Positions 1 to 6,242 of a stretch of 64,000 nt of DNA are shown in pieces. The notes beneath the pieces are model-generated. The model did no database searches, had not been told where the DNA came from, and saw only the letters and a program-made list of their open reading frames with translations. Position numbers and translations under genes: made by a program. The stretch is taken from assembly GCA_919901855.1 (NCBI GenBank), contig CAKKQC010000030.1:1-64000 (forward strand), read 5' to 3'. Source of the DNA: a bacterium (GTDB lineage: Bacteria > Oederibacteriota > CAKKQC01). Every line of letters begins with the position of its first letter. The stretch's first letter is position 1.

Positions 1-100
1 TGTACCTGTACTCGATGTCGAGCAGGACCGTCGTGGTCGTATCCGGCGTCACCGTGAGCCGCGTCACGTGCCCCGCCCGGTCTCTTTCGTATCGCTTCGT
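1..100. repeat. Direct repeat, left copy (partner 2552-2651)
   Basis: Positions 1-100 match 2552-2651 with one mismatch (56 versus 2607). Identity stops at 101/2652. The repeat may extend left of the window. Both copies encode the same Rhs core segment on the minus strand, so it is a potential site for homologous recombination. Confidence 0.95.
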
Positions 101-232
101 GGCCAGCTCCCGCGCGTCACTCATCGAGCCCAGCGCCCCATCTGCGTCGCAGAGGAAGAACCCTTGTTCTCCCGAAAAGTCGAAGGTCCGATGGGTGTCC
201 CCAATCCTGTTTACACAATCCTGTGCGGACAT
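1..232 (-). CDS. Partial second rhs fragment (orphan Rhs module), runs off the left edge
   Basis: An open frame starts at ATG 232, just after an in-frame TGA, and continues past the left edge (77 codons visible). The first ~43 residues are not Rhs-like. From LATKRYERDR onward (positions 1-100) the sequence is a YD-repeat segment with 99 of 100 bases identical to 2552-2651 in the main rhs gene. The switch from unrelated to near-identical sequence is abrupt. In known Rhs loci, displaced orphan tips with a stretch of core homology lie downstream of the main gene and can recombine into it; this arrangement resembles that. Whether the fragment is expressed, or is a larger second rhs gene, depends on sequence outside the window. 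The identity is seen; the orphan-module role is inferred. Confidence 0.6.
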   Translation of the reverse strand, partial: MSAQDCVNRIGDTHRTFDFSGEQGFFLCDADGALGSMSDARELATKRYERDRAGHVTRLTVTPDTTTTVLLDIEYRY

Positions 233-253
233 TGATCAATGACCGGGATTGGA

Positions 254-988
254 TCATTGGCCGTCCGCTCCTCCAGAACACGTGTGGGTCTCCACACCAG
301 TGCCCCGAGAGAATCTCTGTAGCAGGATCGTCACTTTGGTCTTCCTATCCAAGGAACTCACCTCGTAGCCCCCCCGCACCGCGTCGATGATGACCCCCCA
401 AACTACCGGCGTCCAAAGTGCATACAGTGCAAATCTCAGAACGCCCCATCGTCCACGCCAGCCCGAGGAGCTCTTGCTGCTGAAGAGGTGATTACGGAAC
501 AGGGGAAGCGCCGCTCGGATGAACCGGACACGCCAACCTTCTACTGCAAAGGCTATCGGCTTACCGCGCCAGATTGCCTCGTGTCCATCGTCAGAGAATG
601 ATGGGCCACCGATCACAAGAAAGCCGTCCGGAGCGAGCGCATCTGAATCGCGCCTATCGTGTTCTGGCGTTGGTGTTCCCTCAACCCAAATGGTCCCATC
701 CGCGTCAAGCCATTGAATGTGGTACCCAGACGCCACAGCGGTGAAAACAACAACCCACGCCAAGGGCGTCACGAGAGCCAAGGGAGCAAAAGGTACAACG
801 AACCATGAACGACCCATGGCCGACCTGGCAGAACCATCCGTCGGTGGATGGTAAAGGTGACGAACGAAGAGCGTCAGAGCAAGACGGGCAACGCTCACCC
901 GCCAGCCGCTCAGACGGAAACTGAAGGCCTCCCCGTGATCAACCGCCGCATTCCCATCTCTCAAGAAGGGGCGATCACGAAGGATCAT
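254..988 (-). CDS. Membrane protein of two repeated units; candidate Rhs immunity protein
   Basis: A 244-residue protein of no recognised family. It consists of two copies of a ~100-residue unit (about residues 1-100 and 127-222). Each has a GWRV(S/R)xxRxAL-LF-xHL segment, then one hydrophobic membrane span (VVPFAPLALVTPLAW and LRFALYALWTPVVWGV), then GY-x-LD. The start at 988 is chosen because GAGGA overlaps the upstream rhs stop codon and lies 8-9 nt before ATG; a longer frame reaching 1123 would overlap rhs. The gene begins 10 bp after the rhs stop and ends 21 bp before the second rhs fragment. Position directly after an Rhs C-terminal tip is typical of cognate immunity genes. That role is inference from position only. 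Confidence 0.7.
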   Translation of the reverse strand: MILRDRPFLRDGNAAVDHGEAFSFRLSGWRVSVARLALTLFVRHLYHPPTDGSARSAMGRSWFVVPFAPLALVTPLAWVVVFTAVASGYHIQWLDADGTIWVEGTPTPEHDRRDSDALAPDGFLVIGGPSFSDDGHEAIWRGKPIAFAVEGWRVRFIRAALPLFRNHLFSSKSSSGWRGRWGVLRFALYALWTPVVWGVIIDAVRGGYEVSSLDRKTKVTILLQRFSRGTGVETHTCSGGADGQ

Positions 989-998
989 ATGGTAATCC

Positions 999-3900
999 TC
1001 ATTGCGGGCCAATCGCCAAGACGCACGCGATGTAGATCGCCGTGACTGCGCCGCCGCAATATGATCGCATTCTCGCGTCCGGTATCCGGGAACAGGCGTA
1101 ATAGAGCGGACGTACCAAGACAAGGCAGACTCCGCCTCCTCGTACGCGGCTACCTATTGGTCCAGTCAGCAATGGCCTCGAACCGACCATTTCGACCCAT
1201 TGGGAGGGGTCACCCCATCCCAGGTTCATACGCCGCGGAGCCAACAGACTTTCAGGGCGATAACTCCTGCTCGCCCTCGACTCCATATATTCCTTAAGCC
1301 TCTCGCTCGAGTTCTCCGGGAGCACTCCGGGCCTGATTGCTGTTGGCAGCGGTGGCGCTTCTTTGTCGCTGGCCAGTTGCCCGCCAGGAAGCCCCGGAGC
1401 TCCGGAGGTGAAGTCCTCCCAACCAGCCTGAAGGCCCGTTACATCACTTCGGTTTGCAGGACTGTCGGCTACATAGACGTACCGATTCAAGGACGTGCCA
1501 TCTTCAGCGCATCCCTCGATGGGATCACGACTCACAAACCTCCCCACCGCCGGGTCATACCACCGGGCATTCATGTAGATCAGGCCCAGGTCGTCGTCCT
1601 GCTGAAGACCCACGTACCGGTACCGGTTGTGGGGATCCTTCCGGGGCGCATACTCGGCGTTCCCGAACGGTTCGTACCAGTATTCCTGCGTCAGGTTGCC
1701 CTGGGAGTCCGTGAGGTTCGCCACGGAGCCCAGCGCGTCCTGGAGGAAGTACTCGGTAAATGGATCCGGCAGATCGAGCCGCGTCTTGCACAGCCCAGGC
1801 ACGACCAGCGCCGTCGGCCACTTGTCCCCGTTCAGCTCCATAACCACGTTCAGGCCCTCATACACGAACCACCGCCGCGTGGCTCCAGCTCCCTCCCCTG
1901 TTACCTCCTCCACCCTTTCCCCGCTCGCGTCATACCCGAAGTACTTCGTCCCCGAGGGCGTCACCGCCTTCCGCATCCGCTCCCATCCGTCGAACTCGCA
2001 GCTGAGCCCGGTGCCGGGCCCCGCCAACACCCTCCGAGCCGCCAGATTTCCCCGCTCGTCCCATCCGTACTCCACCTTCGTCTCCGCCCCGACCCCACCG
2101 GTCAGGCTCGTCAACTGGTCGTCCGCGTCGTATTCGTACAGCTCTGGTGCCGCGAACGATTTCGGGTTCGTCGCCCCCGTCCGGTTCCCTCCCCGGTCGT
2201 ACGTGTACCCGAACTCCGGCCACACCGTCGCCGACGCCGCCTTCAGACGATTCAGCTTGTCGTACGTGTACGTCCACAACCCCGTGATGTCCCGCATCGT
2301 GGAGCGGTTACGGGCCAGATCGTACGAATAGTAGAAGTAGCTCAGGGCGGGACCGCCCGGTCCCCGTCCGTGCCAGATCTTCGTCACCTGACTCGCCTGG
2401 TCGTACGTCATAGTCGTCACGATCCCGTTCGGGCGAGAGATCGTCGCAAGGTTCCCTCCGCCACCGCCGCAGGAGGCGCAGGATCCGGCCTCGTATCCGT
2501 ACGTCGTCTCCTTTCCGTCGGTCGTGAGCCGATCCATCTGCGAAAGGTCGTTGTACCTGTACTCGATGTCGAGCAGGACCGTCGTGGTCGTATCCGGCGT
2601 CACCGTCAGCCGCGTCACGTGCCCCGCCCGGTCTCTTTCGTATCGCTTCGTCGCGAGGCCGGTGATGGATTCCTCCACCAGCCGATTTAGTGAGTCGTAT
2701 GTCGAGTTGACCACGTAAGGCGAGGCGCCACTCGACCCCGGCACCGTCGTCGCCGCATAGGTCCGATTGCCCACCTCGTCGTACCGGAAATCCTCCTCCG
2801 GCGTATTCGGATCGCCAGGCGCCCGCATCCGCCGCAGTCGCCGCAAGGAATCGTACAGGTAATCGGTCTCCAGTCCGCCCACGGTCCGCGCCGTCATATT
2901 TCCCACGGAGTCGTATTGCATGGTGTCTTGCGATCCGCCCGGATGGAGAATGCTGATCCGCCGGTTCAGCTCGTCGTAACCGTAGGTTGTAATGTGGCCG
3001 TTAGGGTCGGTGACGGTCGCGAGGTTACCGACGGGGTCATAGTCGAGGTAGATCGTGCCCCCCTCGGCGTCGTGGACTTCGGAGAGCAGACACGCCGAGT
3101 TGTACCGGTACGTCGTGGTATGGCCGTTTCCGTCCGTAACCGCGACCAGGTTGCCGGCCGAGTCGTAGTCGTTGTTCGTGATCAGACCTGCACCATCCGA
3201 CACGGTGTCCACCTGATCCCGCTCCGTGTAGGTGTATGCCGTGTACCGCCCCGTCGCATCTATCGCCTTCGACAGCAGGCCGGTGACGGGATAGTACTCG
3301 TTCTTGGTGCGCGCCTGCCACGTTCCATCCGGAGCCACCGCGAAGCGGGTCTCGACCAGACGGTTCTCAGGATCGTAAATGTGCTCCGTCCGGACGCCTC
3401 GCGGATCGCCAATAGCCGTTCGCCGTCCCCAGGCGTCAACTTCGTACCGCGTGAGGTAGTGATCGAAAACCCCGGGAGACGTCTCCAGCCACCGGTCGGT
3501 ACTCGTGAGCTGGCCGGTGCCGTTGTACGCGTACTCGGTGATGTTCCCCTTCGGGTCCTCGACCTTGATCAACAGACCCCGGTTGTCGTACGTCCGGTGA
3601 GTGACCAGAATCTTGGGGAGCTCGTTTAGTTCGGATATCGCGGCGATGTACTCCGTGGTCGTTGTGCAGTGCCCGGCCGCGTCATAGGCATGCTCCGTCC
3701 GATCGCCATTGGGGTCCGTGATATGCGTGACGCGGCTGAAGACCGGATCGTACATGAGCGTGGCACTGCCGCCACGGGCGTCGACTGCCAGCGTGAGATT
3801 GCCGCGGTTGTCGAACGTCCCCGTGGTCCGGTGGCCCAGCGCGTCCTCCGATGAGACCGGGTTGTAGCCAGCATCCCAGTTCAAGCGCAGGCTCCCCGAT

Positions 3901-6242
3901 CCGCAGTCCGCCACTTCGGTGAGCATACGACACCCTTCGTGCACGTAGGTCGTGACCTTCGCCCCGAAGAGGCCCGGTTCGGTCGCAGTGGTGATCTGCC
4001 GGGTCCCCGCGCGCTGGTAGCCGTAGAAGACGAGGGGAATACCGGACTCGGTCAGTTCCCGCTCGACCATCCCCTGGGTGTTGTAGACGACATGCCGCCG
4101 CTTGTCCCCGGCCGGCGCCCGCGCATCCACCCGGTGCGTCATCTTCCCCGTGACCAAGTCATACTCGTAGAGTGCGTTGTAGATTCCGTCTGGGCCCGTC
4201 ACATGCCAGAGCCGGCCGAGGCCGTCGTATGCGTATACCGTCTCTACGGTCCCGATCCCGGATGGGGTGGGCGCCGTTAGCTTCCAGAGCCGTCCTTCCG
4301 TGTCGTAGTTGAGGGAGACCTCTACGGTGGCCTCCTCCGCGACGGCGGAGCCGAACTCGACTATCGTCGTCGAGGCATACACGATCTGGACCAGCCGTGA
4401 GCCCAAGGCACCAGTCTTGAAAAGGGCGGTCGGGGTGTAGCTGAAGGTGAGCCGGTTGCCATTCGGGTCCCTCATCCGGATGAGCCGGCCGTCCGTGTCG
4501 AACTCGCGCTGGAGGCCGTGCTTGGACCGCAGGTTCACCCCCTGCCCCGTGATGGTGAAGGAATCAGAAATACCGGGCGGGTTGGCCGTCTCGCCCGTCT
4601 GCGAGTACGTGTATCCGACATCGCGCCCGTCGCCACGCGTCTCCACGTAAAGCATCGCCCCCGATGCGGGGTCCTGCTGTGGCCTGACCGCGGCTTCGTA
4701 GTTGAAGATCCATCCCGGCCCCAGCGAGGACTCGAACGGCGTCCCGCCGATGCCCTCTCCGGCGTCTCCCCCCACGGTGCCGTCCGGCGAGAACCGGCCG
4801 ATCGGCTGGGCCCGCAGGCTGTTGTACGTGCGCTGGAGGGTGAGCGTCAGCCCCGCGAAGGGCAGGGAGAGGTCGGTGACCGTGAAGACGAGGTTTCCAC
4901 TCAGGGCGTTCACCCCTCCGGGGCCCAGCGCCTGGTATCCATTCTGCGGATACCCCACACTCGTCACGCCGCACGGCTCGTTGCCCAGACGCGCGAGCAC
5001 GCCGTCCGCCGTGACCACAAAGAGCCCGGCTGACGTGACGGCGACTTCCCCGACTACCGGTCCCGCACCTACCGGAATCGCCTGCCGCTCAGCAAGCGTC
5101 GCGGGGTCGTAGACGTGCACGTTGCCTGCCGTATCACCGAAGAGGATCGCATCCCGCGCCATCGTAACGCCCGTCGACGGCGCCACCGTGAAGTCCGTCG
5201 CTCCAATGAAGCCACCCGACCCGGCTGTCAGCAGGCTGAGCCGATGTCCCGCCCGACTCAACGACACGACCCGGTTGTTGCCTTCCGTCACCGAGTTCTT
5301 GTCGACCGCGCCGGTGTCGGCATAGGACCAGAGGATGCTTCCAGTGAGCGGCTCCCGCCCCGCTATCCCGGCGCCGTTGACGAATACGCTCACAAGCTCG
5401 TACTGGCCAGCCAGCACGTGTACACCCATCTGGGCATTCCCGTAGTCGAAGAACTGGTCAACCACGCCTACATCGCACTCACTCGTCAGACCTTCGCACC
5501 AGCAGTCTGGAACGATGGTATCCGCATACCACTCAAGTTTCGGCTTCCAGTCGTACCAGTAATTGGAGATGAAACAGAGGTTCTGGAAGATGACCATTCT
5601 GGCTTTCCCCGTGGTCTCCGGGCCGACGTGGGAATAATCATCTGCGGTGAGAGCTTCTCCACACGGCGTATCCCGGGAATATCTAATGCGGGAGAAGGTC
5701 GGCTTTTCAAACAGGACGAGACCGTTCTCGGTAGGCGTCTCGGGCCAAACGAGCGCGGCAATACTTGGATCGGGGAGTGTGTTGGGGCCGGAGAACGAAC
5801 CGTCATCGGGCCACGGCGGGACGGCGAACTCCCGCTCGCCGGTCACTGCGTCGAAAGCTTGATACGCAACGAGATTGTTGTTCGTCGTGAGATATATCCG
5901 CCCCGCGCCCACGCCGACCACAGCCGACGTGAGGCCGGGCACGATCATCGCCGCGGCCCAGAGAGGAGTCCCGTCAGTGGCCGAGAACTTCTCGACCTGG
6001 CCCACGTCGCCGACGACTCCACGCTCGCTCACATACACGCCCCCATCCACGACCACGGGACTGCCGGGTGTGCCGGCCAACCCGGGAATACTCCACGTCG
6101 CTGCAATCGCATCGGGAACCGCGACATCGGCATATCCGTTGAACTGCGGATTGCCGCGGAACTGGGGCCAGTCCGCCGCCCAAGCCGGGCCGGCCGCCAT
6201 CGCGGCGACGCATCCGGCCAACAGGACGAGGGTGCGCAGCAT
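999..6242 (-). CDS. Rhs/YD-repeat protein with N-terminal PQQ-type beta-propeller
   Basis: A 1747-residue secreted protein. It has a signal peptide (MLRTLVLLAGCVAAMAAGPAWA), then PQQ-enzyme-like propeller repeats starting WPQFRGNPQFNG (about 25-420). A DUF6531-like Rhs entry region (ALSGNLVFTVTDLSLPFAGL, about 440-500) follows, then many YD repeats (GNLVAVTDGNGHTTTYRY type). The Rhs-associated core, containing GLIYMNARWYDPAVGRFVSRDPIEG-like sequence, lies near 1550-1575 and ends YVYVADSPANRSDVTGL near 1600. The last ~145 residues are a variable tip with a hydrophobic, five-cysteine end; I do not recognise its activity. In this family the core forms a shell around a C-terminal toxin. The start ATG overlaps the previous gene's stop by one base (TGATG), so the two are probably translationally coupled. 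Confidence 0.9.
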   Translation of the reverse strand: MLRTLVLLAGCVAAMAAGPAWAADWPQFRGNPQFNGYADVAVPDAIAATWSIPGLAGTPGSPVVVDGGVYVSERGVVGDVGQVEKFSATDGTPLWAAAMIVPGLTSAVVGVGAGRIYLTTNNNLVAYQAFDAVTGEREFAVPPWPDDGSFSGPNTLPDPSIAALVWPETPTENGLVLFEKPTFSRIRYSRDTPCGEALTADDYSHVGPETTGKARMVIFQNLCFISNYWYDWKPKLEWYADTIVPDCWCEGLTSECDVGVVDQFFDYGNAQMGVHVLAGQYELVSVFVNGAGIAGREPLTGSILWSYADTGAVDKNSVTEGNNRVVSLSRAGHRLSLLTAGSGGFIGATDFTVAPSTGVTMARDAILFGDTAGNVHVYDPATLAERQAIPVGAGPVVGEVAVTSAGLFVVTADGVLARLGNEPCGVTSVGYPQNGYQALGPGGVNALSGNLVFTVTDLSLPFAGLTLTLQRTYNSLRAQPIGRFSPDGTVGGDAGEGIGGTPFESSLGPGWIFNYEAAVRPQQDPASGAMLYVETRGDGRDVGYTYSQTGETANPPGISDSFTITGQGVNLRSKHGLQREFDTDGRLIRMRDPNGNRLTFSYTPTALFKTGALGSRLVQIVYASTTIVEFGSAVAEEATVEVSLNYDTEGRLWKLTAPTPSGIGTVETVYAYDGLGRLWHVTGPDGIYNALYEYDLVTGKMTHRVDARAPAGDKRRHVVYNTQGMVERELTESGIPLVFYGYQRAGTRQITTATEPGLFGAKVTTYVHEGCRMLTEVADCGSGSLRLNWDAGYNPVSSEDALGHRTTGTFDNRGNLTLAVDARGGSATLMYDPVFSRVTHITDPNGDRTEHAYDAAGHCTTTTEYIAAISELNELPKILVTHRTYDNRGLLIKVEDPKGNITEYAYNGTGQLTSTDRWLETSPGVFDHYLTRYEVDAWGRRTAIGDPRGVRTEHIYDPENRLVETRFAVAPDGTWQARTKNEYYPVTGLLSKAIDATGRYTAYTYTERDQVDTVSDGAGLITNNDYDSAGNLVAVTDGNGHTTTYRYNSACLLSEVHDAEGGTIYLDYDPVGNLATVTDPNGHITTYGYDELNRRISILHPGGSQDTMQYDSVGNMTARTVGGLETDYLYDSLRRLRRMRAPGDPNTPEEDFRYDEVGNRTYAATTVPGSSGASPYVVNSTYDSLNRLVEESITGLATKRYERDRAGHVTRLTVTPDTTTTVLLDIEYRYNDLSQMDRLTTDGKETTYGYEAGSCASCGGGGGNLATISRPNGIVTTMTYDQASQVTKIWHGRGPGGPALSYFYYSYDLARNRSTMRDITGLWTYTYDKLNRLKAASATVWPEFGYTYDRGGNRTGATNPKSFAAPELYEYDADDQLTSLTGGVGAETKVEYGWDERGNLAARRVLAGPGTGLSCEFDGWERMRKAVTPSGTKYFGYDASGERVEEVTGEGAGATRRWFVYEGLNVVMELNGDKWPTALVVPGLCKTRLDLPDPFTEYFLQDALGSVANLTDSQGNLTQEYWYEPFGNAEYAPRKDPHNRYRYVGLQQDDDLGLIYMNARWYDPAVGRFVSRDPIEGCAEDGTSLNRYVYVADSPANRSDVTGLQAGWEDFTSGAPGLPGGQLASDKEAPPLPTAIRPGVLPENSSERLKEYMESRASRSYRPESLLAPRRMNLGWGDPSQWVEMVGSRPLLTGPIGSRVRGGGVCLVLVRPLYYACSRIPDARMRSYCGGAVTAIYIACVLAIGPQ
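2552..2651. repeat. Direct repeat, right copy (partner 1-100), inside rhs
   Basis: This is the copy of the 100-bp repeat inside the main rhs gene; it encodes the segment from TKRYERDRAGHV to the following YRYN. One mismatch with the left copy. Confidence 0.95.

What the first reader, a model, noticed from the sequence alone, without database searches (positions are those of the whole stretch)
1..6242. Rhs locus with orphan module organisation
A complete rhs gene with a unique tip is followed by a small downstream gene and then a second rhs fragment. The fragment changes abruptly from unrelated sequence to 99/100 identity with the main core. This is the layout that lets Rhs loci swap toxin tips by recombination. 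The tip, the downstream protein and the fragment's leading sequence are all unfamiliar to me, so this may be a new toxin-immunity pair.
Basis: partly seen in the sequence, partly recalled or inferred. Interest (0 to 1): 0.75.

Follow-up and report, generated by a model that had tools for sequence, protein, structure and literature searches.

The report
Rhs toxin locus with orphan modules
This is a bacterial weapon gene whose last piece (probably a toxin) is swappable: next to it lie a likely protector gene and spare tip modules joined to copies of the gene's core. The layout is known from other bacteria, but this toxin-protector pair matched nothing in the collections searched and comes from a poorly known lineage.

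Summary
The window starts at a contig end, so the fragment is cut by assembly. A 1,747-aa Rhs protein (999-6242, minus) has a signal peptide, a BamB/PQQ-like N-terminus, DUF6531, YD repeats and an Rhs-associated core. It ends in a unique 145-aa tip, followed by a 243-aa internally duplicated membrane protein (254-985) and a second fragment (1-232) that rejoins the core at 103/106 nt. The same genome holds a 3.5-kb contig (C78) with two more core copies, another Cys-rich tip, its own downstream gene and an ATG-started orphan core. The contig ends share exactly 55 nt with the main core, as expected of a k=55 repeat break. G+C at third codon positions drops from 0.80 (core) to 0.63 and 0.59 (tip, partner). 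In the same phylum, similar loci carry lysozyme, cell-wall-hydrolase, NlpC/P60, VanY-like and phospholipase A2 tips, and in one array like tips pair with like downstream genes. I conclude: a polymorphic Rhs toxin-immunity locus with orphan modules. Tip and 243-aa protein are probably a new pair acting at the cell envelope; toxicity is untested. No T6SS markers were found, so delivery is unknown. New member of a known kind.

The parts
999..6242 (-). Main rhs gene, 1,747 aa
   Evidence: ORF; RHS_repeat E 5.6e-61, DUF6531 3.7e-9; TIGR03696 Rhs_assc_core 1e-19, YD_repeat 1.1e-33; solved Rhs relatives such as 8qja, 7q97, Tse5 and Tse15
6174..6242 (-). N-terminal hydrophobic signal-peptide-like segment MLRTLVLLAGCVAAMAAGPAWAA
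   Evidence: Hydropathy 1.86 over residues 1-23; Sec signal inferred from its form
5829..6074 (-). BamB/PQQ-like propeller stretch (aa 57-138)
   Evidence: PF13360 E 7.1e-6, 26.3 bits, slightly below the 27.6 cut-off
1431..1676 (-). Rhs-associated core domain, end of the conserved part (aa 1523-1604)
   Evidence: TIGR03696 1e-19
999..1436 (-). Variable tip CT1 (145 aa plus stop), putative toxin; Cys at tip residues 104, 115, 127, 138
   Evidence: No Pfam, NCBIfam or PHROGs family above cut-off; GC3 0.63 against 0.80 in the core; single-sequence AlphaFold2 gives helices 93-116 and 121-142, pLDDT of 10-residue blocks 82-95 over residues 101-140
254..985 (-). Putative immunity gene: 243 aa, two tandem repeats, each with one predicted membrane segment
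   Evidence: Repeat alignment score 152 against a maximum of 45 in 1,000 shuffles; hydrophobic segments 60-88 and 182-203; GC3 0.594; no relatives in 384 genomes, plasmids, viral contigs or GTDB contigs
2..232 (-). Orphan rhs fragment ORF, open at the contig end; about 104-232 leader, about 1-103 core
1..106 (-). Core copy in the orphan fragment; the last 55 nt are identical to the main core
   Evidence: 97% over 106 nt; exact 55-nt end overlap
2552..2657 (-). Counterpart of the fragment inside the main core
2057..2591 (-). 535-nt stretch identical to C78:842-1376, the likely collapsed repeat where the assembly breaks

Best explanation
This is a polymorphic-toxin (Rhs) locus with a chained array of orphan tip modules, cut by the contig end. 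The main Rhs protein is exported by a Sec-type signal (inferred). Its core carries a variable C-terminal tip, CT1, and the next gene encodes a two-repeat membrane protein that is the cognate immunity protein (inferred). Downstream lie 5'-truncated core copies, at least one of which leads to another tip and another partner gene; homologous recombination between core copies can put a new tip and immunity gene behind the full-length core (known for this layout elsewhere, not seen here). The most likely action of CT1 is at the target cell's envelope, through its hydrophobic helical hairpin, with immunity provided in the membrane by the 243-aa protein. The array architecture is shown; pairing is supported by comparison; toxicity and the membrane mechanism are inferred (about 0.45 for the mechanism).
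For: Domain architecture. Further core copies in the same genome, in one case followed by a different tip and a different partner gene. Tight spacing: in C78 the tip gene and its partner overlap by GTGA, and the partner and the next orphan overlap by ATGA. The composition drop at tip and partner in both contigs, GC3 0.80 and 0.79 in the cores against 0.59-0.68. Contig ends share exactly 55 nt with the core. Same-phylum arrays G012 (L049) and G023 (L050) have repeated [core fragment, tip, partner] units. In G012 like tips pair with like partners: lysozyme tips m1/m5 (64%) with NHL propellers p1/p5 (69%), m2/m3 with p2a/p2b/p3, m4 with p4. Recognised tips in the phylum are Phage_lysozyme 2.6e-15, NlpC/P60 5.9e-7, Phospholip_A2_2 1.6e-8, cell-wall Hydrolase_2 4.2e-6 and VanY-like 2.7e-5, i.e. 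envelope enzymes. The partners examined mostly carry N-terminal membrane or lipoprotein-like segments.
Against: CT1 has no recognised toxin domain and no relatives, so its toxicity rests on position and analogy. The AlphaFold model is single-sequence (mean pLDDT 61.7), and only the last ~45 residues are confident; Foldseek found nothing with E<=0.001. The 243-aa model is unusable (pLDDT 41.6). The genome has no TssC/VipB and no PAAR match, so delivery to a target cell is unexplained. The continuation of the window's own fragment is missing.
Confidence: 0.75

Rival explanations
1. The tips are not toxins but variable surface or adhesive tails of a secreted YD-repeat protein, and the array is debris of tandem duplication.
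For: CT1 and the C78 tip have no catalytic domain; CT1 is short and hydrophobic; no T6SS markers; C78 contains a core copy that ends abruptly and is followed by the start of another PQQ-type gene.
Against: Each new tip comes with a new downstream gene, tip and partner share a foreign composition, like tips pair with like partners in G012, and several phylum tips are known lytic enzymes.
Confidence: 0.14
2. C78 belongs to a co-binned strain rather than to the same chromosome, so the 'array' in this genome is one orphan fragment plus another strain's locus.
For: The genome is a draft of 91 contigs, 93.5% complete; C78 is an isolated 3.5-kb contig; a strain mixture also gives shared k-mers.
Against: C78 carries tip and partner genes that are not alleles of those of C30, and three entries into and three exits from the shared 535-nt repeat balance if all copies lie in one genome. 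The window's own fragment shows at least one orphan copy next to the main locus in any case.
Confidence: 0.12
3. The left fragment is a misassembly: a chimeric join of a core read to unrelated sequence.
For: It sits at a contig end and ends exactly 55 nt into sequence identical with the core.
Against: It differs from the main core at 3 of 106 sites and keeps the reading frame across the junction, and C78 shows an independent junction of the same kind, in frame, with 1.2 kb of core.
Confidence: 0.04

Closest known systems
rhs-CT/rhsI loci with orphan modules in Enterobacteriaceae (Poole et al. 2011, PMC3150448; Koskiniemi et al. 2014, PMC3967940)
   Same: Full-length rhs, variable tip, downstream small gene, then core fragments that share high identity with the main core and lead to other tip/partner pairs; recombination between core copies is documented there (95% over 522 bp in Salmonella).
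   Different: Those orphans usually lack start codons, whereas here the fragment and the C78 orphan begin with an in-frame ATG, in C78 overlapping the partner's stop. Those systems are T6SS-linked in several species; no TssC or PAAR was found here. The tip junction is DVTGL or DLAG rather than DPxGL.
Polymorphic toxin systems with membrane immunity (Zhang et al. 2012, PMC3482391: W-TIP pore-forming tips; two-TM Imm17 and Imm-CdiI)
   Same: Small hydrophobic tip with two helices; partner made of two predicted membrane segments.
   Different: No RxxR/Wx[ST]IP pair was seen by eye in CT1; the partner is a tandem duplication with no match to any Pfam immunity family.
Same-phylum arrays G012 (L049) and G023 (L050)
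   Same: Repeated core-fragment, tip, partner units ending at contig ends; Cys-rich tips in G023.
   Different: Two of five G012 tips are recognisable lysozymes; no sequence relation to CT1 or to the 243-aa protein was found.

Membership tests
Rhs/YD-repeat polymorphic toxin | YD repeats and Rhs-associated core domain | tested here: met
   PF05593 5.6e-61, TIGR03696 1e-19
Rhs/YD-repeat polymorphic toxin | Variable C-terminal tip beyond a conserved core | tested here: met
   Two core copies in one genome with unrelated tips; 58 diverse tips elsewhere
Rhs/YD-repeat polymorphic toxin | Adjacent cognate immunity gene | tested here: inconclusive
   A tightly spaced downstream gene is present for both tips; cognate pairing was shown only by comparison in G012
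Rhs/YD-repeat polymorphic toxin | Tip is toxic and is neutralised by the partner | not testable with these tools
   Needs expression in a laboratory strain
Orphan rhs-CT/rhsI module array | Downstream core fragments homologous to the main core | tested here: met
   C30:1-106 at 97%, C78:443-1653 at 95%, C78:2923-3525 at 86%
Orphan rhs-CT/rhsI module array | Fragment leads to a different tip and partner | tested here: inconclusive
   Seen on C78; the window's own fragment is cut by the contig end
Orphan rhs-CT/rhsI module array | Contiguity of all modules in one locus | tested here: inconclusive
   55-nt end overlaps fit adjacency of C30 and C78, but no spanning read is available
T6SS-delivered Rhs effector | PAAR domain or T6SS genes in the genome | tested here: not met
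   No PF05488 and no PF05943 in the own genome, 93.5% complete
W-TIP pore-forming tip | RxxR in helix 1 and Wx[ST]IP in helix 2 | tested here: not met
   Motifs not seen in the CT1 sequence by eye

The most novel reading that the evidence does not exclude
CT1 represents a class of short Rhs tips built as cysteine-stapled hydrophobic alpha-hairpins that act in the target membrane, neutralised by duplicated membrane proteins. CT1 has Cys at 104, 115, 127 and 138, mirror-symmetric about the predicted hairpin turn. An unrelated tip in the same phylum (G023, L050:5998-6825) has ten of eleven Cys symmetric about one point.
Probability: 0.2. Interest if true: 0.6.

Novelty: new member of a known kind. 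Interest (0 to 1): 0.42.

Why it matters
It extends orphan-module Rhs arrays to a little-studied phylum, in a genome without T6SS markers, gives two candidate toxin-immunity pairs that match no family in the libraries searched, and suggests that tips in this lineage often attack the cell envelope. The missing delivery route is a testable open question.

Tried and rejected
1) The fragment's leader as an IS or transposon end: AACAGGATTGGGGACACCCATC with up to 3 mismatches occurs only there in the genome, so not supported. 2) CT1 as a FrhB_FdhB_N domain: E 0.016, below cut-off, covers 26 residues; rejected as chance. 3) Weak CT1 hits in ten other genomes (E 0.001-0.008 per genome, 384 genomes searched, most with internal stops) are at chance level. 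4) Fold search of the CT1 model: best E 1.3, nothing usable. 5) The 243-aa model is too poor to search. 6) Core search in GTDB contigs and 243-aa searches in viral contigs, plasmids and GTDB contigs found nothing; the contig scans reach close relatives only. 7) The second rhs-like gene of the genome (C75) has no DNA similarity to this locus. 8) Cys symmetry as a general rule of Rhs tips: strong for one tip (5e-5), modest for CT1 (0.014, many tips tested), absent for most; kept only as the novel case.

Full report
OBSERVATION. The window is bases 1-64000 of contig C30 of a 4.68-Mb, 91-contig draft genome, so window base 1 is a contig end. On the minus strand the order is: main rhs gene 6242-999 (1,747 aa), downstream gene 985-254 (243 aa), then a fragment ORF that starts at ATG 232 and runs off the contig. 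The fragment matches the main core over 106 nt at 97% (1-106 versus 2552-2657).

THE MAIN PROTEIN. It has a signal-peptide-like start, a weak BamB/PQQ-like propeller match, DUF6531, twelve RHS-repeat stretches and the Rhs-associated core at aa 1523-1604. Its solved relatives are Rhs effectors such as Tse5, Tse15 and Tre23, and teneurin-like proteins. The conserved part ends at 'NRSDVTGLQ', followed by the 145-aa tip CT1.

WHY THE FRAGMENT IS SHORT. The last 55 nt of the contig are identical to the main core, and the first 55 nt of contig C78 (read on its minus strand) are also identical to the main core. An exact overlap of 55 at both ends is what a de Bruijn assembly with k=55 leaves at a repeat (the choice of assembler is an inference). 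The main core and C78 share a 535-nt identical block, window 2057-2591. Counting paths, three core copies enter that block and three leave it, and the only unpaired ends are the left end of C30 and the right end of C78. The simplest reading is that C78 follows the window's fragment.

CONTIG C78 (3,525 bp, locus L017). On its minus strand it reads: core copy at 86% to the main core; tip CT2 (100 aa after the junction, 10 Cys); a 252-aa partner with an N-terminal membrane segment, overlapping the tip gene by GTGA; an orphan core that starts at an ATG overlapping the partner's stop (ATGA) and is 95% identical to the main core over 1,211 nt; an abrupt end after 'EPFGN'; the start of another PQQ-type gene; and a short palindrome found at five places in the genome, where the contig stops. 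So the genome has partial core copies beside the main one, and unrelated tips behind different copies.

THE TIP AND ITS PARTNER. Neither has an above-threshold match in Pfam, NCBIfam, PADLOC or PHROGs. The 243-aa protein had no relative in 384 genomes, plasmids, viral contigs or GTDB contigs. It is a tandem duplication (alignment score 152, best of 1,000 shuffles 45) with one predicted membrane segment per repeat. GC at third positions falls from 0.80 in the core to 0.63 in CT1 and 0.59 in the partner; on C78 from 0.79 to 0.68 and 0.63. This fits modules imported separately from the core. CT1's last ~45 residues are predicted as a hairpin of two helices even without an alignment (pLDDT of 10-residue blocks 82-95 over residues 101-140). 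The four cysteines are placed symmetrically about its turn (chance 0.014 in shuffles, uncorrected for the 17 tips tested).

COMPARISON WITHIN THE PHYLUM. Of 45 genomes of the phylum, 22 carry core relatives. G012 contig C6 has five [core fragment, tip, partner] units in 11.2 kb, and G023 contig C31 has three, with overlapping or near-overlapping genes. In G012, tips that resemble each other are followed by partners that resemble each other, which is the expected rule for toxin-immunity pairs. Recognised tips in the phylum are lysozyme, NlpC/P60, cell-wall hydrolase, VanY-like and phospholipase A2. The examined partners mostly begin with a membrane segment or a lipoprotein-like signal. The common theme is the cell envelope, which is why an envelope action is the best guess for CT1.

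MECHANISM. Shown: architecture, repeated cores, different tips behind different cores, compositional mosaic. Supported by comparison: tip-partner pairing. Inferred: export by Sec, toxicity, membrane action, and swapping by recombination, which is documented for the same layout in Salmonella (PMC3967940) and proposed for CDI/Rhs loci (PMC3150448). Delivery is unexplained: no PAAR and no TssC/VipB were found in the genome. A small hydrophobic two-helix tip with a two-membrane-segment partner has precedent in the polymorphic-toxin survey PMC3482391 (W-TIP tips; Imm17 and Imm-CdiI), though CT1 is not a member of W-TIP.

NOVELTY. The kind is known. New here are the host lineage, two unfamiliar tip/partner pairs, and orphans that keep an in-frame ATG, in one case overlapping the stop of the preceding partner gene; orphans described earlier usually lack start signals.

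Noticed in passing
L050:5998-6825 (G023): Rhs tip with 11 Cys, ten of them mirror-symmetric about one point (shuffle probability 5e-5), suggesting a disulfide-stapled helical hairpin.
   Followed up: partly
L049 (G012:C6, 11.2 kb): Array of five rhs tip modules, including two lysozyme tips each followed by an NHL-repeat protein with an N-terminal membrane segment; the contig breaks at both ends.
   Followed up: yes
L101 (C78:1-55), L098 (C15:1-55), also C22, C43, C89: A ~53-nt palindromic element (CCATAAGCCGTACCAGGGAACCCCGGGCTTCAGCCCGGGGCGGAATGGTACCCC) occurs at five places in the genome, four of them at contig ends. On C78 it lies inside the start of another PQQ-type gene.
   Followed up: partly
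L018:3672-5621 (C75): A separate YD-repeat lipoprotein-like gene of 649 aa without the Rhs-associated core end, with no DNA similarity to this locus.
   Followed up: no
L028, L029, L088: Phospholipase A2-like Rhs tips (CxxHDxC motif) in two phylum members and another lineage.
   Followed up: partly
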